Virus record (IMG/VR): IMGVR_UViG_3300030060_003808
Coordinates: 1-51,382 of that record
DNA length: 51,382 nt
Strand: one strand, 5' to 3'
Source of the DNA: a virus
The notes below the pieces were generated by a model that searched no databases, was not told the DNA's origin, and saw nothing but the letters and a program-made list of their open reading frames with translations. Each line of letters starts with the position of its first letter. The stretch's first letter is position 1. Both the position numbers and the translations under genes were made by a program. Positions 934 through 51,382 of this stretch are shown here, piece by piece.

Positions 934-2268
934 TTACAAATCTAAGGAATCATTTTGTGCAGCTGCCATTTCTTGATCTTGGGCCAACAACATTGCACCA
1001 GCCACAGGTATTGCAACACCATATTTTTTAGAGATATCGATTACTCTGTCGTCAAAAATAACATAGTTACTGGTTTGGTCACCGACTTCCGAATACCGAC
1101 TAAATTCATCCAGGTATTTATTTCCTTTAATACCAACTGAATCTAATAACTCAGATGTTTTTTTAGCACCGATAAGCCCCTTCAACTCTCCTGTTAGACT
1201 GGCTCCACTGAAAGGTAACGGATTAGGAACAGATCTTTTTATAGCTTTTAATTCTTTTATGTAGTCACCAATGGTTTCTAGGCCTTCTAAAAAATCACTT
1301 TTTACAAATCCTTCATCAAGATTCAAACTTGAAATGGGTATTTCAAAAAGGTCATCAATTTTTTTCTTTACAGCTTTGTTTTGCTCGTTGAGCGGTTTAT
1401 CAAGATCAAGCAATTCATCTGGCGTTACTTTTAGTTTGACTTCATAAAGTTTTCCCGTGTCTTTTATTTTAATTTTGTCTATATTTTCTTCCAATAATGC
1501 AAGCTCGTCGGCATAACGCATTTTTTCATCAATCGTTCCGAAATCTTCTGCTCTTTTATAAGTTTCTTTTACTTCACCTAGCCATTTTCCAGTATCTTTG
1601 CCTGTTCTGTTTATTCTTTCAAAAAGATAAGTGTCAAAATATTCATTGCCTGTCGTGCCAACATATTCGTTGCCGATCCAAACTGGCTTTCCATCGTATT
1701 CAATGACAGCGCCCAATGCTTCTTTGTAGTTTTTTCCTACTTCATCTGCTTCTGCAAAATATAAACCACGGCCAAATGCTTGCACTCCTTCACCTGTGCC
1801 GATTTTTCCAATATCAAACTTATCGAAATCAGCAGCGGTTCCATGATAAGCAGTAATATAGTCCTCGCTTTCTGGTAAAGATGATAAGCCTTTCGCTTTT
1901 GCACCTTTGCTGGCCTTGCCTACAGCTCCGATCCCTTTGAGAGCTGTTCCAGCAATCGCTCCGTATGGTCCTGTGAGCGGAATTGAGGCATAAGCAGCAT
2001 CTCCCAGGACACCAGCTGACTGCAAAATTGCATCCAGGTATTGTTTGTTGGCAATGTTTTCAACAAAGCTCGGCATTTGCTCGGTAGGAATCATTTGTTC
2101 TTCGGTTGGCATCTCTGGATAGAAACCAAGATAGTCTGAGATCCCGGAGCTGGGTGCCATCAATCCAGCCATCCAAGCAGCTTGAGCTGGCAAAGCGCCT
2201 ACGCCTTCGCGATATGCTTGTGCTTCCTCCTGGCTGCGGAAGGGTTGAATTGAAAACTCACTGACCAT
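934..2268 (-). CDS. ADP-ribosyltransferase-like (ART polyvalent type) protein
   Basis: 444 residues. Residues 1-130 are alanine/glycine-rich with hydrophobic stretches (about 82-115), like the non-catalytic leader of ejected phage proteins. The catalytic-looking part begins with AYHGT (140-144), then GRGLYFAE (166-173), and near the C-terminus YVIFDDRVIDI (about 400-411). This H...G-(R/K)-G-(L/I)-YF pattern is typical of ART-fold domains in phage polyvalent proteins, which transfer ADP-ribose from NAD to a host target. The gene is downstream of terS, separated by a hairpin-rich non-coding region. No clear Shine-Dalgarno precedes the ATG. The ART assignment is from motifs only; activity and target are inference. 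Confidence 0.7.
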   Translation of the reverse strand: MVSEFSIQPFRSQEEAQAYREGVGALPAQAAWMAGLMAPSSGISDYLGFYPEMPTEEQMIPTEQMPSFVENIANKQYLDAILQSAGVLGDAAYASIPLTGPYGAIAGTALKGIGAVGKASKGAKAKGLSSLPESEDYITAYHGTAADFDKFDIGKIGTGEGVQAFGRGLYFAEADEVGKNYKEALGAVIEYDGKPVWIGNEYVGTTGNEYFDTYLFERINRTGKDTGKWLGEVKETYKRAEDFGTIDEKMRYADELALLEENIDKIKIKDTGKLYEVKLKVTPDELLDLDKPLNEQNKAVKKKIDDLFEIPISSLNLDEGFVKSDFLEGLETIGDYIKELKAIKRSVPNPLPFSGASLTGELKGLIGAKKTSELLDSVGIKGNKYLDEFSRYSEVGDQTSNYVIFDDRVIDISKKYGVAIPVAGAMLLAQDQEMAAAQNDSLDL

Positions 2269-13914: not shown

Positions 13915-14757
13915 TTATTCCCTTCTCAAATCTACTGGCACTTGATCTTCACCATAATACGACACAAATTGATCGTATAAACTTGAATCCTTCCTCAACT
14001 CATCTATTGCTTCTTTTGGCGGCACTGGTTTTTGAACACTAATAACGGCATCAACATCAAAACCAGGTGTTGTAATTTGTCTTTCACCACCACCAGGTTC
14101 TTTTCTCAGTTCGGTTTTTGCTTGTTCAAGCGTTGCTTTCGCTACTCTAAAATATGGATCTTGTGCTGGATCATAAGGTTTCATTCCACCTTCTCCATCT
14201 GGTACCATTCTAAAAGTGTTTGTAGATGGATCAATTTTGGAAAGTATGTAATTCCAAGCACCAGCCTCAGTTGAGGTGCCGCCGAATAATTCGCCCTTAT
14301 TTTTCATTTGCTCAACCATCAAATCAAATTGTTGATCCAATGCCTTCGATCTAAGTGCTGCTTGCTCTTGTCTCTTTGTTTCGACTTGTTGATATGCCAA
14401 CATAGCAAGATCTTGTTTTAATTTATTTTTTTGAGCTTTTAGGTCACTAACTTTTCTATTAAACGATTCTAGGCCCGCCGTTAAACCAACACCAAAACCA
14501 CCTGGATCTGAGGCACCCGCGACCATGCCAGCACCAACAGCAGACGCTAAATCATAAATGTTTGCTTTTCTCGGTTGTGGAAACAATCCAGCCATGTTTT
14601 CCATTTGGTTTTCTATATCTGTTTGTGTGACAGGCGCACTCGCCCCAAGCGCACTATACAAATCAATAATTTCTTGTTGAGTAAAATTAGAAGTTGCGCC
14701 ACCACCTTCCTGGAATACGTCAATTTGCTCCGGTATTTGTGCCCGTGTGATTGCCAT
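13915..14757 (-). CDS. Probable internal virion protein with FQEGG N-terminus
   Basis: 280 residues. The N-terminus contains IDVFQEGGGA (about residues 12-21), nearly the same as DIDIFQDGGAA in the RelA-like protein at 49682-51049. A glycine/alanine segment (about 65-90) is followed by a coiled-coil (SDLKAQKNKLKQDLAML). Located between two large glycine-rich virion genes, with an ATG that overlaps the previous stop by one base. Function unknown. Confidence 0.6.
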   Translation of the reverse strand: MAITRAQIPEQIDVFQEGGGATSNFTQQEIIDLYSALGASAPVTQTDIENQMENMAGLFPQPRKANIYDLASAVGAGMVAGASDPGGFGVGLTAGLESFNRKVSDLKAQKNKLKQDLAMLAYQQVETKRQEQAALRSKALDQQFDLMVEQMKNKGELFGGTSTEAGAWNYILSKIDPSTNTFRMVPDGEGGMKPYDPAQDPYFRVAKATLEQAKTELRKEPGGGERQITTPGFDVDAVISVQKPVPPKEAIDELRKDSSLYDQFVSYYGEDQVPVDLRRE

Positions 14758-38773: not shown

Positions 38774-39012
38774 TATAATCTTTTGATTATGTAGTTAAGG
38801 CCGCCAGCGCTTCTGTATTCAATCAATTTATTATCCTCATCTATAAATTTTAAGTGCCTATCTTTTTGAACCATGACTCTTTTCGATATATAAATTCTAT
38901 CATCGGCATCGCCATACTCTTTGTTCCAGGACACTGTAATTTCATATCTTGGCCTCATTAAGTTTATCAACCAAGTAAAAAACTTTTTAGCAGCTTTTTT
39001 TATACTGTCCAT
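38773..39012 (-). CDS. Unrecognised basic protein (79 residues)
   Basis: The N-terminus is basic and amphipathic (SIKKAAKKFFTWLINLMRP), possibly membrane-peripheral; the rest is beta-rich (YEITVSWNKEYGDADDRIYI). It lies between the cyclase and the spanins, overlapping the cyclase by 13 bases and the spanin by one. Function unknown. Confidence 0.55.
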   Translation of the reverse strand: MDSIKKAAKKFFTWLINLMRPRYEITVSWNKEYGDADDRIYISKRVMVQKDRHLKFIDEDNKLIEYRSAGGLNYIIKRL

Positions 39013-40766
39013 ATTGGCAGCTCATCCTTTTTACCTTTTACTTTAATCGATTCTAGTGATTTTAATACAAGTTTGCAATTCTTTGCAGTGTTCTCACCAA
39101 TCAATATATCTACACCTACGTCTTTTGTTGCGCTTTCTAATCTCGCCGCAGTATTAACTGGATCACCGATTGCTGAATAATCAAATCGAGTGTCAGATCC
39201 CATGTTACCTATGACAGCATTACCGGATTGACAGCCGACGCCCACTTGGACTGGATTGGATAATGTTTTGTTGAGCTCGTCTATTCCTTTTTGTATGTCT
39301 ATGGCCGCTTGAACAGCTTTGGTTTCATGTTCATCAAGATCCAAAGGAGCTCCAAAAATAAACATCCCGGCATCCCCAATAAATTTGTCGGTCATTCCTC
39401 CTAGTTTTTGCACAGCGTTTACTTGGACTGTCAAAGTTTTATTCATTATTTCGGTTACTTCTTCTGGAGATAATTTTTCACTGAGAGCTGTAAAACCACG
39501 AAGATCTGTAAAAAGATAAGTGCAGTATCTTTTTTCTCCGCCCAGCTTCAACAGATCTGGATTTTTTTGGAGCTGCTTAACTTGTCTTGGATCCAAATAA
39601 TGCTCAAATTGTTTTTTGATCTGTTGTCTCAGTTTATATTGTTTTCTGAAATTTAGATAAAAAGCGACAAAACCTACGATAAAACCAGCAATTAATGTCC
39701 AGGTAACATCAATTAAAAGCCCTTTTTGTATGGTTTGGTATCCAAAATAAGCGATTAGAGCGTTTATCAGCCCATAAGATACTAGACCAAGGGTAATGCC
39801 AAATACGTTCAATACGATCCAAATACAGCTTACTGAGAGCAAAAACAGTGCTATTTCTGCCAACAAAGCATAGTCTGGGATAATTGGGCTGTCTTGGATT
39901 AAAATTGACTCAGAAAGCGCAGCTTGTATTTTATGCGGTTCCAATAGGCCAGCTGGTGTCGCAACCTGTGGCATGATGCCTTTGGCCGTTACACCAACAA
40001 AAATAAAACGACCTTTGATGAGCTCAGTCTGTCTAATATCATTTAATGAAAATTGTGGCGTATCAACCCAGCTAATCCATTTTCTTCCCAGGGTGTCTGT
40101 TTTGACAGGAGGCAAGCCTTTAACTCGGACCTCTTGGATTCCAGCATCGGAGGTTTTAATTACATAAGTATCGGCACCAGCAAGGACTTTTAAGACTTCT
40201 GTTCCGTATGCACTCACCCAGCCATCTGGTGTTCTGAGCAACAATGGCATACGCCTTACCAGCTGATCTACTTCTGTGGGTGCTACCGCAATGCCCTGGT
40301 ATGCTGCTTCTCTTAATATCGGTATGTTCTGCACCACGCCTTTTGCTTTGAAACCGCCATGGTCTTGGCCCAAAATCACTGTTCCGGTTGTCATTGGGTA
40401 TTCGCCATTGTCGTTTTCAAATGTAGCCAATACGCTTGGTGCAGCTGCTAGGCTTTTTGCAAACTCTGAGTCACCACCAAATCTGTCATTCTGTGGAAAA
40501 GAGATTACCCAGCCAACTCCCAAGGCGCCTTGATCTAATAATTCATTTTGAATTTTTGCCAAGCGGTTTCGTGGAAACGGATAACCGCCTTCTTTTTCTA
40601 CGTCGTCTTCCGTAATGTTTAGTATCGAGAAATATCCAGAAGGTTTTTGTTCTGGAACCAATGTATCAAATGTTTTGAGTTTTAGTATTTCTAATGGAGT
40701 CCATTGTTGGACCAAAGGAGCTCCTAATAAAATGAGCAAAAAACCTAGCTGTATGGCTCTAATCAC
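39000..40766 (-). CDS. CHASE2-domain class III adenylate cyclase
   Basis: 588 residues, GTG start. After a signal-anchor (about 5-20), an extracytoplasmic CHASE2 domain spans about 28-290; three membrane helices follow (about 300-320, 322-345, 350-372). The linker FEHYLDPRQVKQLQ leads to a class III cyclase domain (412-588): metal-binding D421 (FTDLRGFTAL) and D465 (FIGDAGMFIF), adenine-selecting K461 and D535, transition-state N538 and R542 (DPVNTAARLE). All key residues for cAMP synthesis are present. A phage-encoded membrane cyclase of this type is unusual. Its start overlaps the curlin-like 2 stop by eight bases. Confidence 0.9.
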   Translation of the reverse strand: MIRAIQLGFLLILLGAPLVQQWTPLEILKLKTFDTLVPEQKPSGYFSILNITEDDVEKEGGYPFPRNRLAKIQNELLDQGALGVGWVISFPQNDRFGGDSEFAKSLAAAPSVLATFENDNGEYPMTTGTVILGQDHGGFKAKGVVQNIPILREAAYQGIAVAPTEVDQLVRRMPLLLRTPDGWVSAYGTEVLKVLAGADTYVIKTSDAGIQEVRVKGLPPVKTDTLGRKWISWVDTPQFSLNDIRQTELIKGRFIFVGVTAKGIMPQVATPAGLLEPHKIQAALSESILIQDSPIIPDYALLAEIALFLLSVSCIWIVLNVFGITLGLVSYGLINALIAYFGYQTIQKGLLIDVTWTLIAGFIVGFVAFYLNFRKQYKLRQQIKKQFEHYLDPRQVKQLQKNPDLLKLGGEKRYCTYLFTDLRGFTALSEKLSPEEVTEIMNKTLTVQVNAVQKLGGMTDKFIGDAGMFIFGAPLDLDEHETKAVQAAIDIQKGIDELNKTLSNPVQVGVGCQSGNAVIGNMGSDTRFDYSAIGDPVNTAARLESATKDVGVDILIGENTAKNCKLVLKSLESIKVKGKKDELPIWTV

Positions 40767-41472
40767 CTTGATTAATCGTCAATGTTTTATTGCAATTATT
40801 GGTGCAGTTATAATTTACTGTGATTGATTTATTGGTTGTTCCCGATTGACTTGCGGTGACATCGTAATCATCTGTGTAGAAATTTAATCTCATGTAATGA
40901 TCCCCGCTGCCTGTTTGTGTGATTGTGGCATCGTTGTTATCAGCCGAAGTGCTCGCATAAATCTTGGCGTAATGTTCTCCCGTTCCGGATTGATTGATAG
41001 AAAAATTGGAGCTGTCGCCAAAAGCACGGATCTCGCCTTCTTTATCATCGCCAGTTTGAGTTATGGAATACACGTTATTATCGCCTTGCATGTAGATTTC
41101 TGCATCGTTGTTGTTGCCATTCTGCACAACATCCATATCATTTCCATCATCGTCTGCATCGATATAACCAAAGTTATCATTGCCGTCCTGGTCAATCTTG
41201 TATTCATTTCCTGTGTGGTTGGCTACTTGGCTGTAAGCTCTGGCCGTGTTGCTCGTTCCTTCTTGGTCAATATCAATCGTAGCATTGCTGCAATTATGTG
41301 TGGTGTAAGTGCCTTGCGATAACCCGCACCAAACTCTTGCAGTATTACTGGTGCCAATTTGATCGATATGTATTAGCGAGGAGCTGCCTTTGGTTCTGAT
41401 CTCAACATTGTTGTCGCCCGCAACAGCAACAAAAGAAAATATACTAATCAGACTGATTGATAATAATTTCAT
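40759..41472 (-). CDS. Curlin-like amyloid protein 2
   Basis: 237 residues from the ATG at 41472, preceded by GGAGGCGGAGAAA. Signal peptide KLLSISLISIFSFVAVAG. The mature protein is a series of curlin-type strands: IDQIGTSNTA, IDQEGTSNTA, IDQDGNDNFG, VVQNGNNNDA, ITQTGDDKEG, INQSGTGEHY and ITQTGSGDHY, as in the Q-x-G-x-x-N repeats of CsgA/CsgB. It ends TLTINQGD. Expected to be secreted through CsgG and to form amyloid. Four Cys (two pairs) are unusual for curlins. Confidence 0.85.
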   Translation of the reverse strand: MKLLSISLISIFSFVAVAGDNNVEIRTKGSSSLIHIDQIGTSNTARVWCGLSQGTYTTHNCSNATIDIDQEGTSNTARAYSQVANHTGNEYKIDQDGNDNFGYIDADDDGNDMDVVQNGNNNDAEIYMQGDNNVYSITQTGDDKEGEIRAFGDSSNFSINQSGTGEHYAKIYASTSADNNDATITQTGSGDHYMRLNFYTDDYDVTASQSGTTNKSITVNYNCTNNCNKTLTINQGD

Positions 41473-42535
41473 TTTCTCCGCCTCCATTGGTGGTTATGTT
41501 TATCTGCTTACCAGCAGAGAGTATCTGTATATTATATCCACCGGATTTATCTAATTCTAAATCAATGGTGTTTTCTACTTGCCTAACCAAAGTTAAGATT
41601 TCGCCTTCGACAAACGTATATACTTGTGCATCTTGGTCAAATCCAGCAATGATTCCTTCTATTCTCACGCCATCAATTTCACTAGCGTCTTGTTCTTTTT
41701 TACCTAAATCTTCAATGATTTCAAGTAGATCTTGTAGAAAATCGACGGCCAGTAAATCAATATCAAGCCTGGTAATCTCATCTTGTAGTTCATCTTCCGA
41801 TAAACCGCTGTCGTCGTCTAGGTCATTTTCCTCCAAAAAATCAGCATCCAAAACATTGCTCGACGAAGTGCTTTGATCTTCAACAGCTCTTTCAACTTCT
41901 TCTGGTGGGCTCACGATCAATAAATTATCAATAAAATTGAGCGATAAGTTTGCCAATACGACAGGTTGTGTCGGTGGTCTTTCTGCAACACTGACCATTG
42001 TGGCTTGGAATGGTTGATTCAAAACCTCGGTCCCGGCTATGGTTTCGACACTGATTGATCCAGAAGTGGTGCCGTCTGGGTTGGGAAGTAGAATTATAAG
42101 CGAGCGGCCGAGCTCATCGACTGTGGTTGTAAAATCAGTGCCTCTGATAAAAATTGAAGCACTCGGTGTCTCTATGGAGATGTTTTCTTTGTCTATTTTT
42201 CCCAGGGCGCCAGTAATAAAGCGGGCTGTTCCGCTGGCCATCTTGAGTGCCATTTTGCTTTTAGAAGGGTTAGGATCAAATATGTATTCATCAATAATGA
42301 TTTTAGAGTGCTCAGTAAGACGAATAACAGAAGAATCGAGAAACGTAATGCCAAGCCTACCATTGCCAGTCCGCACATCATCATAACTAAGAATGTCCAA
42401 AGAAGTTCTTGCGAGAAGTTTATCCGTTTGATCTGCTCGTAAAACTTCTCCATTGCCTCTGAGCTCAGATATCTCGCCCACTTGTGCATAAACATTGAAA
42501 GCCAGTGACGCTAGGATTAGCAGCCACTTGTGCAC
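41444..42535 (-). CDS. Secreted FecR-domain protein
   Basis: 363 residues, GTG start overlapping the curlin-like 1 gene. Signal peptide MHKWLLILASLAFNVYA. A FecR beta domain spans about 45-145 (GNGRLGITFLDSSVIRLTEH, MASGTARFITGALG, IETPSASIFIRGTDF). The middle is acidic (about 215-290). The C-terminus ends NEIIINQSD, resembling the curlin-like TLTINQGD end. FecR proteins transmit periplasmic signals and are often found next to CHASE2 cyclases in bacteria. Confidence 0.75.
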   Translation of the reverse strand: MHKWLLILASLAFNVYAQVGEISELRGNGEVLRADQTDKLLARTSLDILSYDDVRTGNGRLGITFLDSSVIRLTEHSKIIIDEYIFDPNPSKSKMALKMASGTARFITGALGKIDKENISIETPSASIFIRGTDFTTTVDELGRSLIILLPNPDGTTSGSISVETIAGTEVLNQPFQATMVSVAERPPTQPVVLANLSLNFIDNLLIVSPPEEVERAVEDQSTSSSNVLDADFLEENDLDDDSGLSEDELQDEITRLDIDLLAVDFLQDLLEIIEDLGKKEQDASEIDGVRIEGIIAGFDQDAQVYTFVEGEILTLVRQVENTIDLELDKSGGYNIQILSAGKQINITTNGGGENEIIINQSD

Positions 42536-43200
42536 TGATCTATGTCTATCGTTGCATTACTGGTGGTGGATGTAATTACCACAACGTCTGAAACACTGCC
42601 TGTGCTATTTGTTTGATCGATGTCTATGTTGTTCGTGGATCCGTCGATCTCAGCTGTGATTGAATGGTCAGAGTTTCCTGTTTGTGTCGTATCAATATCA
42701 TTAGAATCGCCATCAACATCCCAATTATTTATGCAGCCAACCACCTCACATGTTGCATTGAGATCATTTGAGTTTCCAGCAATTACGATGTCTTGATTAC
42801 CAGCGGTTGCGGTTGCTGCTGCACCTTGGGTAAATGTTACTGTGTTTGAATCACCTGTGGCCGCGTAATCGAAATCAGTGTTCGCTACATCTCCACTCGC
42901 ACCCAATGCCAATGTGGTTGTATTACTATCACCTGTAGTTGTAGCTGTAAAACTGGTGCTATTACCTTGGGCCACAGAAGCAGCCATGGTATTACTGTCA
43001 CCCACTTGGTCAATATCCACAGTCATGGATGTTCCTGTAAATGTTGCTCTCGTTTGTGATGTACCCACCTTGTTTGTGTCACCGATCTGATCTATATTCA
43101 TGGTCAACCCGGTTCCAGACTGAGTGATATAAATATCATTATTGCCAGCGTAAACTGTAGATACAGCAAACAATAAAATTAAACTAAGTATTTTCTTCAT
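42517..43200 (-). CDS. Curlin-like amyloid protein 1
   Basis: 227 residues from the ATG at 43200; an upstream in-frame ATG would add nine residues inside the csgG gene. Signal peptide KKILSLILLFAVSTVYA. Repeats such as IDQIGDTNKV, IDQVGDSNTM, TGDSNTTTL and TQTGNSDHSI show the x-Q-x-G-x-x-N amyloid pattern, but less regular than in curlin-like 2. Four Cys near the C-terminal half. Likely a second secreted amyloid subunit. Confidence 0.8.
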   Translation of the reverse strand: MKKILSLILLFAVSTVYAGNNDIYITQSGTGLTMNIDQIGDTNKVGTSQTRATFTGTSMTVDIDQVGDSNTMAASVAQGNSTSFTATTTGDSNTTTLALGASGDVANTDFDYAATGDSNTVTFTQGAAATATAGNQDIVIAGNSNDLNATCEVVGCINNWDVDGDSNDIDTTQTGNSDHSITAEIDGSTNNIDIDQTNSTGSVSDVVVITSTTSNATIDIDQCTSGC

Positions 43201-44005
43201 AACTAATGTCCCACAATTCTTCGTCAATACCTATTTGAATTAGATTATACACGGATTCTTCGATCGCAGCTTTTGTCGCATATCCCATGGGCTCATTTTC
43301 ACTATACCCGGTTTCTAGCTCAACGAGCTCCGTGCCCATTTCTATAAAACGAAACACATCTCTGCTCACGCCAGCGCTTAATATTGTTTTTGAAACCATC
43401 GTATTTAAAATGACTTCACCTGTTTGCACCAAGACAGCTCTCAAAGAAACAGTTATTTCGTCTTTACGCCACTGGTTATTTGAGCCAATTCCAAGGTATC
43501 TGGCCCCGTTTCCTCCGGTACCGATATTTGTATCATACTGTATAATCGCGCCTTCAATTATAATACCAGCAAATAATAGGGGTTTTAAAGTGTTGCCATT
43601 TTCACCATCATAACTTTGCCTGGTAGATTTTATGAGTTGACGTTCCCGTGTCAAAGCGTCTAAATTATTACGCTCAACGACTACAAACCAATTCCCTTTG
43701 CCCGCGCTTCTCAAGGAATCAATCAAATAATGGTCAGCTCCCTGGGTAACAGCGGTGCTAAATAATGCCATTTTCTGTGAGCTCTTGCGCTGTCCAGTCA
43801 AATCTTGAAACTTATATACGGCGACAACTGCTTTTTGATTGGGTGGCGGCAAATTAACCAGTTTTTCATGTGTTGGCCGCACAATTTTTGCTTCTTCAAC
43901 ACATTCTAAAAAACTGCCACAGCCAGTGCTGCCTACAGGTGCAAAGCTCGCACATCCATGCAAAATTGGCAATAAAACTATTAAATACCGCACTCGCCAG
44001 TACAT
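43184..44005 (-). CDS. csgG: CsgG-like curli secretion channel lipoprotein
   Basis: 273 residues, nearly the E. coli length. Lipobox ILHGC (C18). Conserved blocks: LPPPNQKAVVAVYKFQDLTG, FSTAVTQGA, NWFVVVER, GIIIEGAIIQYDTN, GGNGARYLGIGSNNQW, SKTILS, FRFIEMG and SENEPMGYAT, all in CsgG order. It should form the outer-membrane nonameric pore for curlin subunits. Constriction residues differ from E. coli (see findings). GGGG site upstream. Confidence 0.9.
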   Translation of the reverse strand: MYWRVRYLIVLLPILHGCASFAPVGSTGCGSFLECVEEAKIVRPTHEKLVNLPPPNQKAVVAVYKFQDLTGQRKSSQKMALFSTAVTQGADHYLIDSLRSAGKGNWFVVVERNNLDALTRERQLIKSTRQSYDGENGNTLKPLLFAGIIIEGAIIQYDTNIGTGGNGARYLGIGSNNQWRKDEITVSLRAVLVQTGEVILNTMVSKTILSAGVSRDVFRFIEMGTELVELETGYSENEPMGYATKAAIEESVYNLIQIGIDEELWDISYEENT

Positions 44006-46462: not shown

Positions 46463-48805
46463 CTAGTTTCCTCCTTCTAATGCTGATATTTTTGTTTCAG
46501 CAACTTCTAGTCTTTCAATTAATTGCTGTATGACCGAAATATACATTGCATCCTTTTGGACAAATTCAGATGTTTTTGAGATGCCTTTTACATCGCCATC
46601 TAGTTTAGTAATCTGATCGAGCAGAAGTGTGTCTTTTCTGTCTGCATCGGTTTCGACTTCTTCAATAAATCTTGGATCGATTGCTTCTTGTTCTTGAGCA
46701 ATGAATCCGATTTGCTGTGTTTTTCCGCCATGTTCTTCTGGGTTTATCCAATCAAAAGTTTTAGGAGAATACGCTTTAAACTTTTCAATGTCGTATGAAA
46801 AATCTTCAATGTTTTCTTTCAATCTTCCATCAGACGGACTATACGAGCCTTGAATGGTTAGATTACCAGAGCTGTCGAGTGTCATGTTCTCTGTGCCACC
46901 TGTTATCCAATACATCGTGTTTCCATCGTGATTGTAATAAAACTGACCAGAACCAGTGCCCGCTCCCGCACCATCTGCGAAATTGATTCTATTTTGTGAA
47001 CCGCCATTTCGAGTGTGCATAGAGATTATTGCATCTCTCGCGCTGGAGTCTTCGGTGCAATGTATTAAAAGTTTGCAAGTTCCCTCTTTTGATATGGCTG
47101 CTCTTTCTCCGTCAACGGCTGCTGTAGCACCGACAAAGAATACTCCATCTCCAACAACCGCGGTTACACCTGTAGATGAGCCAGCTCCCATATCTATCCT
47201 ATTTCCATTGTGGGCATAATTTATAAAGCCCGAAACAGTGCCTTCATCTTTGAATCTAATAAGTGCATTTCTATTGGCGGCACCTGTATCAAATACTAGT
47301 GTTGGATCGCCACCGCTTGCAGAATCTATAAGTAATGTTGGATCTGCAATATTTGACATTCCTACTCTAAGTGTTCCACTTTGACTGAACTCATAAAGAG
47401 CAGTTCCAGCGTTATTGCGATATGAAAGAGCATTAGTCCTTGAATCATCGCTGTGTAATTCCCACAGTCTGCTTCCGTTTTGATAAATTTCAAAACCTGT
47501 GTCATATCCGTCAGCAGTATTATCTATACGAATAAAGGCAGAAGCTCCGCCGCCTTTTACATGAAGGTCTTTAGACGGGGCATTGGTCCCCACGCCCAAA
47601 CGATCTTCTCCACCATCAACAAAAAGCATATTGGCATTGCCGTTGCTTTCAACACGGAAATCTAAATCTACTGAATCTTCGTTTATAACTGTTTCTGTGC
47701 TGTTAGCAAGAACCCTAGAATTTTGCGCTCCAGCTAAAATGGTGTAAAGCTCGAAACGACCATCTTCTGTGCCATCGGAAGCATCGACAATCCTCGAAGC
47801 CAATCCAGCATAAATTACATCTTGAGAGTTATCGTTTCTGCCTTCAAACTGTATTTCACCTATGTAATCGTTATCTGCTGGTGAACTTGAGTTTCTATAC
47901 ATTCTAATGTTTGGACCAACTGCTGCATCTGCATCCGTTGAAACAAGAGAAAGCTGATCGGTATTATCGCTTGTCGTAATGGTTAATCCGCCATCTGGGA
48001 TCGCTACATCTTTGTTCTCATCGACAGAAATAATTGGTGTAGTGCCTACTGTTGAACCTAGGCCAATAAGTAAATCATCGGCTGAATCATCTAGGGCAAT
48101 GTAAAAATCTTGTGCATTTCCGTCAAAAACTATTGCGGTGTCAACTGCTGCGCCATCTCCTAGGGTTACAGTATCATCGGTGATTGTCAGTATATTGTTG
48201 GTTCCGACTGTAGAACCTTCACCAATCACTAATTTATCGGCTGAATCGTCTAAGCCAACATAAAAATCTTTTGCATTTCCGTCATATACAAGTTTTGTGT
48301 CTTCTGCTGTTCCATCACCAAGCGTTATGGTTGTTCCGGAAACAGTTAAAGAATCAGCGACGTTGAGATCTGTAAATGCCTCAACCATAGCCCCGCCCGC
48401 GCCAGCTCCGTCTGAGTAAATTGTTTTTACATGACTATTGGGTATTGTAACAGTAGCCCCGGTGCCTTGTTTAATAATAATGTCGTATGGCCCAGAAGAT
48501 CCGCTGTCTGTTGTGGCGTTTTCAATAAACCATAGCTTTGAAACTGTGTTTGGGCTTATGGTAATTGTGCAAGTCGAATCCAATGCCCCGGTGTACTTCA
48601 AATACATCGATCTGCCTGGATCAGTCGCTCCGTCCGCAATCACAGTAGCGTGTGTATCGGCATTGCTGGTGATGGCCTCAGTCCCAAAACTAAAGGCTTC
48701 TGAAATCAACTCCAGATTTGTATTAGTGGTATCGCCCCAGGTTCCACTCTGCTCACCCGTTGTTATCTCTTCTAGTCTTAAATCATTTGTATATGCACTT
48801 GCCAT
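46463..48805 (-). CDS. Tail fibre/spike with C-terminal intramolecular chaperone (Peptidase S74)
   Basis: 780 residues. C-terminal domain from about 656: SPSDGRLKENI (Ser658/Asp659 area, autoproteolytic site), then the IEKFKAYSPKTFDWINPEEH...QIGFIAQEQEAID series of endosialidase-type chaperones and a terminal coiled coil (VIQQLIERLEVAETKISAL). The body contains two nearly repeated blocks about 160-255 (YDGNAKDFYVGLDDSADKLV; FDGNAQDFYIALDDSADDLL). The trimer should bind host receptor and self-cleave after folding. Confidence 0.85.
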   Translation of the reverse strand: MASAYTNDLRLEEITTGEQSGTWGDTTNTNLELISEAFSFGTEAITSNADTHATVIADGATDPGRSMYLKYTGALDSTCTITISPNTVSKLWFIENATTDSGSSGPYDIIIKQGTGATVTIPNSHVKTIYSDGAGAGGAMVEAFTDLNVADSLTVSGTTITLGDGTAEDTKLVYDGNAKDFYVGLDDSADKLVIGEGSTVGTNNILTITDDTVTLGDGAAVDTAIVFDGNAQDFYIALDDSADDLLIGLGSTVGTTPIISVDENKDVAIPDGGLTITTSDNTDQLSLVSTDADAAVGPNIRMYRNSSSPADNDYIGEIQFEGRNDNSQDVIYAGLASRIVDASDGTEDGRFELYTILAGAQNSRVLANSTETVINEDSVDLDFRVESNGNANMLFVDGGEDRLGVGTNAPSKDLHVKGGGASAFIRIDNTADGYDTGFEIYQNGSRLWELHSDDSRTNALSYRNNAGTALYEFSQSGTLRVGMSNIADPTLLIDSASGGDPTLVFDTGAANRNALIRFKDEGTVSGFINYAHNGNRIDMGAGSSTGVTAVVGDGVFFVGATAAVDGERAAISKEGTCKLLIHCTEDSSARDAIISMHTRNGGSQNRINFADGAGAGTGSGQFYYNHDGNTMYWITGGTENMTLDSSGNLTIQGSYSPSDGRLKENIEDFSYDIEKFKAYSPKTFDWINPEEHGGKTQQIGFIAQEQEAIDPRFIEEVETDADRKDTLLLDQITKLDGDVKGISKTSEFVQKDAMYISVIQQLIERLEVAETKISALEGGN

Positions 48806-48823: not shown

Positions 48824-49540
48824 TTATACGGAGTCTCTACCCGCATCTATATTAGTATAGTTTGGAGTTTGAGTTGTTGCAATGTCTGAGTAACTAGGAG
48901 TTTGTGAAGTGCTGACATCCGAATAGTTTGGAGTTTGGTCAGTATCAATCAATCCATACACTAAAATAAATCCTGGGCTCACTGTCACGCTTACTCCGGT
49001 AAGGCTTACAATGGCTCCGGCTTGTATTGATACAGAGCCAATCGAGCTGGACATTGATTGGCCATCCAGGGTAAATATCTCATTGTGGAAGACAGTAACC
49101 GATCCAATGGCCGAAGTTATGGCCACGCCTGTTGGTGTGACGTTGGCTTTGGCGCTGACTGTTGGAGCTCCCAAAGCAGAAGTAATCGCTTGGCCGCTGA
49201 CACTGACAACCGCTCCAGCAACGACGCTTGGAGAGCCTAAAGCAGAAGTGGCAGCAATGCCTGTTGGTGTGACGTTGGCTTCTGCGTCAACACTCGGAGA
49301 TCCGAGCGCAGAAGTAATTGCTATCCCGGTTGGGCTGACATTGGCCTCTGCATCGACACTTGGAGTTCCAAGTGCGGATGTAATCGCTATCCCGGTTGGT
49401 GTGACATTAGCCTCTGCATCGACTGTTACGCTGCCAAGAGCAGAGGTAATTGCAATACCAGTAAGATCTACAGATACGTTGACAACAGCGGGTTGTCCCC
49501 AAGGACCAGAACCCCAAGTAGATCGTCCCCAACCAGCCAT
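48824..49540 (-). CDS. Tail protein with 22-residue beta repeats
   Basis: 238 residues. Starts AGWGRSTWGSGPWGQPA, then about seven copies of a 22-residue unit (TGIAITSALGSPSVDAEANV) covering residues 25-190, and three copies of a ten-residue unit near the end (TPNYSDVSTS, TPSYSDIATT, TPNYTNIDAG). Such Ser/Thr/Ala-rich beta repeats are typical of tail spikes or adhesins. It follows the small gene at 49540 and precedes the S74 fibre. Confidence 0.7.
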   Translation of the reverse strand: MAGWGRSTWGSGPWGQPAVVNVSVDLTGIAITSALGSVTVDAEANVTPTGIAITSALGTPSVDAEANVSPTGIAITSALGSPSVDAEANVTPTGIAATSALGSPSVVAGAVVSVSGQAITSALGAPTVSAKANVTPTGVAITSAIGSVTVFHNEIFTLDGQSMSSSIGSVSIQAGAIVSLTGVSVTVSPGFILVYGLIDTDQTPNYSDVSTSQTPSYSDIATTQTPNYTNIDAGRDSV

Positions 49541-49677
49541 TAGAGATTATCGCGTACTTCAACCAATAAGGTTTTGATCTTGGTAAGCTCCGCTTCGACT
49601 GTATCGGTTATGAATTTGTAATCCAAAAGATAGTCAATCTTAGCAATGGCCTCAATTATTTTTTGTTTATTAGTCAT
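49540..49677 (-). CDS. 45-residue helical protein
   Basis: ATG at 49677; stop TAA at 49540-49542 overlaps the next start (TAATGG). NKQKIIEAIAKIDYLLDYKF and ITDTVEAELTKIKTLLVEV are two helices. Short, conserved-looking proteins with this pattern occur before fibre genes in marine phages by memory. Function unknown. Confidence 0.55.
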   Translation of the reverse strand: MTNKQKIIEAIAKIDYLLDYKFITDTVEAELTKIKTLLVEVRDNL

Positions 49678-49681
49678 TGTG

Positions 49682-51049
49682 TTATTCTACCTCAAAAATA
49701 TTTATGTTTTTAGGATTGTAATTATTTATAAACTTTTGTAAACTTGAATCTATGGAAGAATTTAATACATTATATTTTACTTGGGAAGAAGGGCCAGCAG
49801 TATTAGAGCCTGTTGAAAATGGCGATATTGGGTTCTTCATTACGCCTGGCGAATCTAATTGGATGCTTGCTACACCAAGGCAAGTTGCAGACTTTTTTAT
49901 TGACGGCTCAGAGATGTCCAAAACAAATTTTGAAAATAAATTTGGCGGCATAGGCGAAGGCTTGCCAGAGCTCCCAGCTGTAACATAACCACCACTAGCA
50001 AACTTTTTGATGTCTTGATCGTAAAATCTTGGATCTATTTCTTTTTTTGCTTGCCCAAAAATACTTTGCATTTCCTCAACCAATATTTTTCCTTTTGTTC
50101 GAGCTTCTCTGTTGAGTTTTGCAAGGTCATCAACATTATCCGGCAAACCTTTTGGAAAAACAGATCTAAACTCCTCATAGGCTAAGTGTGTCTTGTTTAC
50201 CGCTTTCCACATTGGTTCAGTTATGACACCAATCTCTGCCACTAGGGTTTCACCATCAGAGCCAGTAAACTGAATGTTTAATTTACGATCTACAAAACCT
50301 TCTGGCTTTATTTTTCTGCCTTTATCAAAAACTTTATAATTTTTCTTCATCAAATTTACAAAGGCTTCTTCTTCGGCTGGTGTTTTGATAACAACTCTTG
50401 TTCTAAGTGAATCGGTTATTTTTGATATATCGCCTTTGTATTTGGTGTCGGTTTTTTCTACAATTCTAGGAACTTGTTTTATTGTTCCAAGTGGCTCTCC
50501 ATGTTTGCCCATTTTTCCAATAGATTCTGGTATTGTTGTTTTTAAATCTAACTGTCTTGCTAGATTGTCAATTTGTTGATTAAACTCCGGGGCCAGTTTT
50601 ACCGCAACACTTCGCATCTTGTGTGCTTTTCCTATGGTAGAGTGTTTTTTATCAAATAATTCACGTTGAACAAATGTCAAATTTTCTCTGCTTGATGTTT
50701 CGCCTAAACCGCCAATTCCTTTCCTAACTGCTGGCATCAATGCTCGTTTGAGCGGTTCTTTGCCGAATCTTGTCAGCTCACCTACAACGGGTATGGCTGC
50801 AAGACCGGATAATCCAGCAATCCCAAGTTTCATCGCGGCGGATCCGAGCTCACCCTGGCTAAAGTCACGATAAGCATCACGGCCGTATTTGCCAGCTGCG
50901 GCTATGTCCATGGCTACGCCTGGAGGAGTGAAGCCAGCTGCAATCTGGGCCAGTAGCGGTACATTTTGTTCGTAACCTTCAACAGCTTTATCAAGGAAAT
51001 CTCTCTGTGCCGCACCGCCATCTTGAAAAATGTCGATATCTCGATACAT
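49682..51049 (-). CDS. RelA/SpoT-fold nucleotidyltransferase-like protein
   Basis: 455 residues. The N-terminus IDIFQDGGAAQRDF is followed by a hydrophobic module (35-92, PGVAMDIAAAG...AIPVVGELTRF). The middle (about 205-295) carries DISKITDSLRTRVVI, KLNIQFTGSDGETLVAEIGVI and KTHLAYEEF, the layout of RelA/SpoT-like synthetase folds (substrate pocket, then E-hxh...H). The C-terminus is Ser/Pro-rich and unassigned. A (p)ppGpp- or pApp-type activity is possible but not demonstrated. No obvious Shine-Dalgarno. Confidence 0.55.
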   Translation of the reverse strand: MYRDIDIFQDGGAAQRDFLDKAVEGYEQNVPLLAQIAAGFTPPGVAMDIAAAGKYGRDAYRDFSQGELGSAAMKLGIAGLSGLAAIPVVGELTRFGKEPLKRALMPAVRKGIGGLGETSSRENLTFVQRELFDKKHSTIGKAHKMRSVAVKLAPEFNQQIDNLARQLDLKTTIPESIGKMGKHGEPLGTIKQVPRIVEKTDTKYKGDISKITDSLRTRVVIKTPAEEEAFVNLMKKNYKVFDKGRKIKPEGFVDRKLNIQFTGSDGETLVAEIGVITEPMWKAVNKTHLAYEEFRSVFPKGLPDNVDDLAKLNREARTKGKILVEEMQSIFGQAKKEIDPRFYDQDIKKFASGGYVTAGSSGKPSPMPPNLFSKFVLDISEPSIKKSATCLGVASIQLDSPGVMKNPISPFSTGSNTAGPSSQVKYNVLNSSIDSSLQKFINNYNPKNINIFEVE

Positions 51050-51080: not shown

Positions 51081-51382
51081 CTAATTTGAATAATCTCCGT
51101 AGCCAATATCATATTTTTCATCTTCCATATCAAGCAAGCCCTGGAATTTTCTCTTCAAGATTCTGTGAACCTTGTGATAAGGGAAATCTTCGTAGCCCGG
51201 GTGTGAGCTCTGAATCTGTCTGGCAATCTTTCTGGCCCCTAAACCTTTGGCTCTGAGCGCATAGATGTGTTTCAGCACTTCCTGTTCTTCCGGGATTGGG
51301 ACCAGCTTGGTTCTGCGTCTGCTGCCAGAGCCATCGTATTCTTTACGATAACCAAATGGTGTGTGGCCGCCAATCGAGTAGC
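51081..51382 (-). CDS. Serine recombinase-like C-terminal fragment, 5' end beyond window
   Basis: YSIGGHTPFGYRKEYDGSGS, then LVPIPEEQEVLKHIYALRAKGLGARKIARQIQ, is the recombinase (PF07508-like) segment of serine recombinases that follows the catalytic domain. The catalytic Ser-containing N-terminus and zinc ribbon are not visible: the first lies beyond the right edge and the latter is absent. It could be an integrase or invertase, or a host-derived fragment. It is transcribed toward the RelA-like gene. Confidence 0.65.
   Translation of the reverse strand, partial: YSIGGHTPFGYRKEYDGSGSRRRTKLVPIPEEQEVLKHIYALRAKGLGARKIARQIQSSHPGYEDFPYHKVHRILKRKFQGLLDMEDEKYDIGYGDYSN

What the first reader, a model, noticed from the sequence alone, without database searches (positions are those of the whole stretch)
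49682..51049. RelA/SpoT-fold enzyme with virion-like N-terminus
Residues 205-295 match the order of a (p)ppGpp synthetase fold, while the N-terminus resembles virion proteins. If ejected with DNA, it could disturb host alarmone signalling at the start of infection. It is located among tail-fibre genes.
Basis: partly seen in the sequence, partly recalled or inferred. Interest (0 to 1): 0.75.

Follow-up and report, generated by a model that had tools for sequence, protein, structure and literature searches.

The report
Swappable phage cargo with alarmone-synthetase fold
A marine phage gene beside the tail fibres encodes an enzyme with the fold and catalytic acids of bacterial alarmone (stress-signal) synthetases; related phages carry other toxin-like enzymes at the same spot behind the same leader, so it looks like one item in an exchangeable cargo probably shot into the host with the DNA.

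Summary
The 455-aa ORF (49682-51049, -) is real. Residues ~119-345 form a small-alarmone-synthetase-type RelA/SpoT (RSH) domain: the domain modelled alone has pLDDT 89 and matches solved SAS enzymes at Z 13-15, unrelated folds at ≤8.5. The catalytic Asp213 and Glu272 are invariant down to 39% identity, with dN/dS 0.10-0.27. It lies between a serine recombinase and tail genes in a phage with the curli/FecR/cyclase cluster of HTVC023P-type pelagiphages.

The gene is a cargo slot: the same ~110-aa leader carries RSH, RSH+ADP-ribosyltransferase, or an unrelated zeta kinase toxin; a second leader carries PBECR5 nuclease or RSH. Cassettes insert cleanly between ~95%-identical flanks. The leader's N-terminal IDIFQxGG recurs on a structural-cluster protein. 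This supports delivery in the virion but does not prove it.

Syn motifs match neither (p)ppGpp-type nor (p)ppApp-type signatures, so the product, alarmone or pyrophosphorylated tRNA, is open. RelA/SpoT in polyvalent and MuF phage proteins is known; the leader system, module shuffling and active-site signature are a new variant.

The parts
49682..51049 (-). Cargo gene, 455 aa: leader + RSH (small-alarmone-synthetase-type) domain + C-terminal tail
   Evidence: ORF; homologues; models
50696..51049 (-). Leader, residues 1-118 (low-confidence fold; one weakly hydrophobic stretch near residues 71-90); homologous leader precedes zeta toxin in other phages
51014..51037 (-). N-terminal motif IDIFQDGG (residues 5-12), shared with window 13915-14757
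50705..50722 (-). Junction motif KGIGGL (residues 110-115), at the leader/payload boundary
50015..50695 (-). RSH / Pol-beta-type nucleotidyltransferase domain (residues 119-345)
50411..50413 (-). Catalytic Asp213 codon (aligned to YwaC Asp87)
50234..50236 (-). Catalytic Glu272 codon (aligned to YwaC Glu154, EIQIRT motif)
49685..50014 (-). Conserved C-terminal tail (residues 346-455) ending INIFEVE; present on all complete RSH relatives, also after inserted ART cassettes
49540..49677 (-). 45-aa ORF; also found behind the zeta payload (L084), not found in L002, so not an RSH-specific immunity gene
48824..49540 (-). Minor tail protein (phrog_8501)
46463..48805 (-). Tail fibre with Peptidase_S74 chaperone
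51081..51380 (-). C-terminal part of a serine recombinase (truncated by the window end; full length in L001)
934..2268 (-). Second cargo gene: ART-PolyVal ADP-ribosyltransferase-like protein, at the slot that holds leader-P + PBECR5 in L005/L006; homologous to the ART cassette inserted in the RSH gene of L010
13915..14757 (-). Structural-cluster protein with the same N-terminal motif (QIDVFQEGGGA); orthologues in L068, L070, L072 keep it

Best explanation
The gene encodes a phage cargo effector: a short leader that probably recruits the protein to the virion (or its ejection apparatus), an RSH-fold pyrophosphokinase payload, and a conserved tail. The payload probably transfers pyrophosphate from ATP to a nucleotide or to a tRNA 3' end in the newly infected cell, slowing host transcription or translation as infection starts. 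Shown by computation: fold, conserved catalytic residues, purifying selection, payload exchange behind a constant leader, motif shared with a structural-cluster protein. Inferred: catalysis, virion packaging, delivery with DNA, effect on the host. The payload slot is exchangeable: related phages carry ADP-ribosyltransferase-like or zeta-toxin modules at the same place, and a PBECR5 nuclease behind a second leader.
For: Fold: Z 14.8-12.4 to SaEAS, SAS1, RelP, Tas1, CapRel with the next unrelated fold at 8.5; pLDDT 89. Catalytic Asp/Glu plus K199, K203, R216, R218, K248, D254-R255-K256, H288, R295 invariant to 39% identity; dN/dS 0.10-0.27 in the domain. Cargo slot: same leader with RSH, RSH+ART, or zeta toxin (PF06414 E=8e-16); leader P with PBECR5 or RSH. 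Clean cassettes: ~521 bp and ~345 bp inserts between 94.7-96.5% identical flanks; zeta replaces RSH between 85% and 88% identical flanks. ART cassette homologous to the window's own second cargo gene. N-terminal IDIFQxGG only on this protein and on a structural-cluster protein of 66 window genes, 0 in 2000 shuffles, kept in orthologues. Nearest viral folds are polyvalent proteins (DdrB-like, ART-PolyVal-like) and a phage RelA/SpoT protein. Literature: polyvalent and MuF phage proteins with RelA/SpoT domains are proposed to be injected (PMC5512222, PMC5576092).
Against: No virion proteomics or ejection data. Syn2-4 motifs are non-canonical (SxH becomes DxK, EIQIRT becomes E[IV]xxIT), so activity or substrate may differ from an alarmone synthetase. 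The leader is not MuF and has no known fold (model pLDDT <50). Single-protein Pfam score is below the gathering cut-off. The motif regexes were chosen after seeing the sequences, and homologous leaders are not independent.
Confidence: 0.6

Rival explanations
1. The enzyme is made inside the infected cell and is not packaged: an intracellular host-takeover, superinfection-exclusion or toxSAS-like anti-rival factor.
For: Known toxSAS/CapRel enzymes act this way (PMC9712102, PMC11559606). Adjacent serine recombinase/integrase-like gene (phrog_95) leaves a temperate life possible.
Against: No RSH-specific antitoxin: the 45-aa ORF also follows the zeta gene and was not found in L002; no HD_4 hydrolase in six related records. 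Leader conserved across unrelated payloads and N-terminal motif shared with a structural-cluster protein argue for targeting.
Confidence: 0.22
2. The payload is an RSH-fold enzyme but not an alarmone synthetase: it pyrophosphorylates tRNA 3' ends like FaRel2/CapRel, or another acceptor. (This concerns the product only and can hold together with the best explanation.)
For: Syn3 DxK and Syn4 without Arg differ from both the GTP (SxH, IR) and ATP (GxN, YH) signatures reported in PMC12226406; CapRel is among the fold matches (Z 12.4); basic residues are strongly conserved.
Against: Single-domain SAS/EAS structures match slightly better than CapRel (14.8 versus 12.4); fold does not discriminate.
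Confidence: 0.35
3. The RSH fold is catalytically dead and serves as a structural or binding module of the virion.
For: Divergent Syn motifs; location among tail genes.
Against: Catalytic Asp and Glu and the basic ATP-site residues are invariant in sequences down to 39% identity, dN/dS 0.10-0.27, and the slot is occupied by other enzyme domains with no structural relation.
Confidence: 0.1

Closest known systems
Phage polyvalent proteins with RelA/SpoT and PBECR domains (Iyer et al. 2017, PMC5512222)
   Same: Phage-encoded, near virion genes, RelA/SpoT, ART and PBECR modules reshuffled, predicted to be injected
   Different: Here one or two enzyme modules behind a constant leader with IDIF and KG[ILV]xSL motifs; RSH there reported from Spirochaete and epsilonproteobacterial prophages; no processing peptidase domain was seen in the window protein
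MuF-RelA toxins / Apk2 (p)ppApp synthetases of prophages (PMC5576092, PMC12226406)
   Same: Phage protein with N-terminal targeting part and SAS-type payload; proposed delivery from the virion
   Different: No MuF domain, no adjacent IapK/Aph1-type immunity found, no GxN Syn3 signature; located with tail rather than head genes
Exported alarmone synthetases such as SaEAS, and T6SS effector Tas1/Apk1 (PMC12691689)
   Same: Best solved-structure matches (8vx3 Z 14.8, 6ox6 Z 13.4)
   Different: Bacterial, exported by Sec/T6SS/T7SS; sequence identity only 15-18%; EAS survey domains (MuF, WXG, PAAR and others) do not include this leader
CapRel / FaRel2 toxSAS tRNA pyrophosphokinases
   Same: RSH fold, conserved catalytic Asp/Glu
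   Different: No fused or adjacent antitoxin recognised; regulatory arrangement not seen

Membership tests
RSH / small alarmone synthetase domain | Pol-beta-type RSH synthetase fold over the whole domain | tested here: met
   Domain model pLDDT 89; Z 14.8 (178 aligned, rmsd 3.5) to 8vx3; unrelated folds at 8.5 or less
RSH / small alarmone synthetase domain | Catalytic Asp (Syn2) and Glu (Syn4) | tested here: met
   D213 and E272 invariant in 13-16 sequences, aligned to YwaC D87/E154
RSH / small alarmone synthetase domain | Curated Pfam RelA_SpoT cut-off | tested here: not met
   14.6 bits versus 27 for the protein; members up to E=1.4e-4
(p)ppGpp-specific synthetases | Syn3 SxH and Syn4 IR signature | tested here: not met
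   F252-V-D254-R-K256 and E272-I-G-V-I-T instead (signatures from PMC12226406)
Apk (p)ppApp synthetases | Syn3 GxN and Syn4 YH signature | tested here: not met
   DxK and VI instead
RSH / small alarmone synthetase domain | Pyrophosphotransferase activity | not testable with these tools
   needs purified protein
Phage polyvalent proteins | Two or more disparate enzymatic domains in one polypeptide | tested here: inconclusive
   Window protein has one recognised enzymatic domain; relatives L008-L010 have RSH+ART
Phage polyvalent proteins | Encoded with virion components | tested here: met
   Adjacent minor tail protein and S74 tail fibre
Phage polyvalent proteins | Injected with DNA | not testable with these tools
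   no proteomics or ejection data
MuF toxins (Apk2) | N-terminal MuF domain | tested here: not met
   No MuF hit at E up to 1 in Pfam or PHROGs; sequence-level test only
MuF toxins (Apk2) | Adjacent immunity genes iapK/aph1 | tested here: not met
   No HD_4 hydrolase in 6 records; the 45-aa ORF is not RSH-specific
toxSAS toxin-antitoxin modules | Cognate antitoxin fused or adjacent | tested here: inconclusive
   Only a 45-aa ORF that also follows the zeta payload and was not found in L002; an unrelated neutralizer elsewhere is not excluded

The most novel reading that the evidence does not exclude
These HTVC023P-type marine phages have a general virion-loading system: short leaders with an IDIFQxGG tag and KG[ILV]xSL joints (possibly cleavage sites) onto which unrelated enzyme toxins (RSH, ADP-ribosyltransferase, PBECR5 nuclease, zeta kinase) are swapped as cassettes, and the RSH payload is a pyrophosphokinase with a new acceptor specificity.
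Probability: 0.3. Interest if true: 0.82.

Novelty: new variant of a known kind. Interest (0 to 1): 0.62.

Why it matters
If right, some marine phages related to SAR11 phages strike the host's nucleotide or translation machinery from the first minute with a payload that they exchange like polymorphic toxins. That gives a defined, testable leader for virion loading outside the MuF family, a divergent RSH subfamily for biochemistry, and a candidate type of cause for the ribosome-poor infected SAR11 cells reported for the related phage HTVC027P (PMC11066056), although that isolate showed neither motif in the 50 kb examined.

Tried and rejected
tblastn of the protein against 50,697 phage records: no match. 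Genome-contig scan with the domain alignment: 64 pattern matches, none a relative, so no host or prophage copy was found. Sequence search of the single protein against PDB gave only chance hits. The profile of 14 members (A9) ranked TPR-containing OGT chains above YwaC; these match only the N-terminal helix and were rejected as composition/helix artefacts. The 45-aa downstream ORF was considered as an immunity gene and rejected as RSH-specific because it also follows the zeta gene. Inverted repeats suggesting that the neighbouring serine recombinase flips or swaps the cargo: only short imperfect pairs, none convincing. IDIFQxGG and KG motifs in HTVC027P and 023Pt_psg01 (first 50 kb): none. Large proteins between terminase and portal in these isolates: no effector domain by Pfam. 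L045's payload and the insert of L024 gave no Pfam family.

Full report
What is there. The window is one whole IMG/VR virus record of 51,382 bases. The ORF at 49682-51049 (-) codes for 455 residues. On its upstream side lies the end of a serine recombinase (51081-51380; full length in the near-identical contig L001, where a C5 cytosine methylase precedes it); on its downstream side a 45-aa ORF, a phrog_8501 minor tail protein and a Peptidase_S74 tail fibre. The phage has podovirus-like structural genes, a terminase 58-62% identical to those of Pelagibacter phage HTVC027P and phage 023Pt_psg01, and a CsgG, curlin-repeat, FecR and CHASE2-adenylate cyclase cluster like the one described for HTVC023P-type pelagiphages (PMC9599517). 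CsgG also occurs in 6 of the 8 records searched, the window included. The host is therefore plausibly SAR11 or a relative; this is inference.

Fold and active site. For the single protein, RelA_SpoT is a sub-threshold Pfam hit, but every homologue points to the same family and a profile finds YwaC. AlphaFold2 on 16 sequences models residues 119-345 well and the rest poorly. The domain alone (residues 131-343) reaches pLDDT 89.1 and pTM 0.84. Foldseek and VIA-align return only RSH enzymes at the top: exported synthetase SaEAS Z 14.8, SAS1 14.2, YwaC 14.1, Tas1 13.4, CapRel 12.4; DNA polymerase X family members, which share the Pol-beta core, follow at 8.5 and below. The match runs over the full length of single-domain SAS enzymes, so this is SAS-type, without a hydrolase domain. 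Asp213 and Glu272 align with YwaC Asp87 and Glu154; they are invariant, with many basic residues, even in relatives of 39-42% identity. dN/dS in the domain is 0.10-0.27. The aromatic residue at the acceptor site is kept (F252, or Y in divergent members), but SxH of (p)ppGpp synthetases is DxK and EIQIRT is E[IV]xxIT; the (p)ppApp signature GxN/YH (PMC12226406) is not met either. The protein is thus very probably an enzyme, with an unpredictable acceptor.

A cargo slot. Searches with domain, leaders and tail gave relatives in several dozen viral contigs. HMM mapping shows modules: leader R (residues 1-110), RSH, tail (346-455). In L011 the leader is replaced by leader P, which elsewhere precedes PBECR5 nucleases. 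In L008-L010 an ART-like cassette sits between RSH and tail; it is homologous to the window's own second cargo protein at 934-2268 (ART-PolyVal, E=6.8e-6; BLASTP 2e-9). In L024, L101 and L103 another module follows RSH, and in L099 and L111 one precedes it. In L084, L102, L104 and L112 leader R carries a zeta toxin (PF06414 E=8e-16 in L084 and 1e-17 in L112, the others near-identical to L084) and no RSH. At DNA level the cassettes are clean: about 521 bp and 345 bp inserted between flanks of 94.7-96.5% identity, and zeta in place of RSH+tail between recombinase+leader (85%) and tail genes (88%). This is the behaviour of polymorphic or polyvalent toxins, not of a structural protein.

Targeting signs. 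IDIFQDGG at residues 5-12 recurs as IDVFQEGG in window 13915-14757, in the structural cluster; no other of 66 genes has it in its first 40 residues and no shuffle does. Orthologues of that protein keep it in three inspected loci (L068, L070, L072) and lose it in two (L073, L074). A second motif, KG[ILV]x[SNGT][LI], marks leader/payload and payload/payload joints and the C-terminal ends of leader-P proteins: 20 occurrences in 13 cargo proteins against 0.31 expected. Both regexes were defined after inspection and several proteins are homologous, so the counts overstate significance; the internal second copies (L010, L024, four in L045) are the stronger part. A role as packaging tag or protease site is a hypothesis.

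Mechanism. Most likely the protein is loaded into or onto the virion through its leader, enters the cell with DNA, and uses ATP as pyrophosphate donor to modify a nucleotide or tRNA, damping host gene expression. Injection of such domains has been proposed for polyvalent proteins and MuF toxins (PMC5512222, PMC5576092), and SAS-type enzymes are toxic when made in the cytoplasm (PMC12691689, PMC12226406). No specific antitoxin or hydrolase was found next to it, which fits a cargo that acts in the next host better than a toxin-antitoxin pair, though a lytic phage might need no immunity at all.

Known and new. RelA/SpoT domains in phage polyvalent and MuF proteins are known; the nearest viral predicted structures are polyvalent proteins. 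New here are the non-MuF leader system with interchangeable RSH, ART and zeta payloads (and a second leader with PBECR5 or RSH), its presence in marine podoviruses of the HTVC023P kind, and a divergent Syn signature. I call it a new variant of a known kind.

Noticed in passing
window 934-2268 (-): Second cargo-like gene: ART-PolyVal ADP-ribosyltransferase-like protein (E=6.8e-6) with a KGLSSL joint; the corresponding slot in L005/L006 holds leader-P + PBECR5.
   Followed up: partly
window 39000-44005 (-): CHASE2 + class III nucleotide cyclase, FecR, curlin-repeat protein and CsgG in a phage; matches the curli cluster published for HTVC023P-type pelagiphages (PMC9599517).
   Followed up: partly
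window 13915-14757 (-): Structural-cluster protein of unknown family whose N-terminal IDVFQEGGGA matches the cargo leader.
   Followed up: partly
L084 1480-2682 (+), L112 257-1570 (+): Zeta toxin kinase fused to the same leader as the RSH protein; in L084 at the same genomic position, between recombinase and minor tail gene.
   Followed up: partly
L045 2720-4525 (+): Leader-P protein with four KG[IL]xSL motifs and no Pfam family; possibly several unknown payload domains.
   Followed up: no
L099 812-2575 (+), L111 3977-5713 (+): About 150-aa insert between leader and RSH domain that looks ParB-like by eye; no Pfam hit.
   Followed up: no
window 49540-49677 (-): 45-aa ORF conserved between cargo gene and minor tail gene behind both RSH and zeta payloads; function unknown.
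   Followed up: partly
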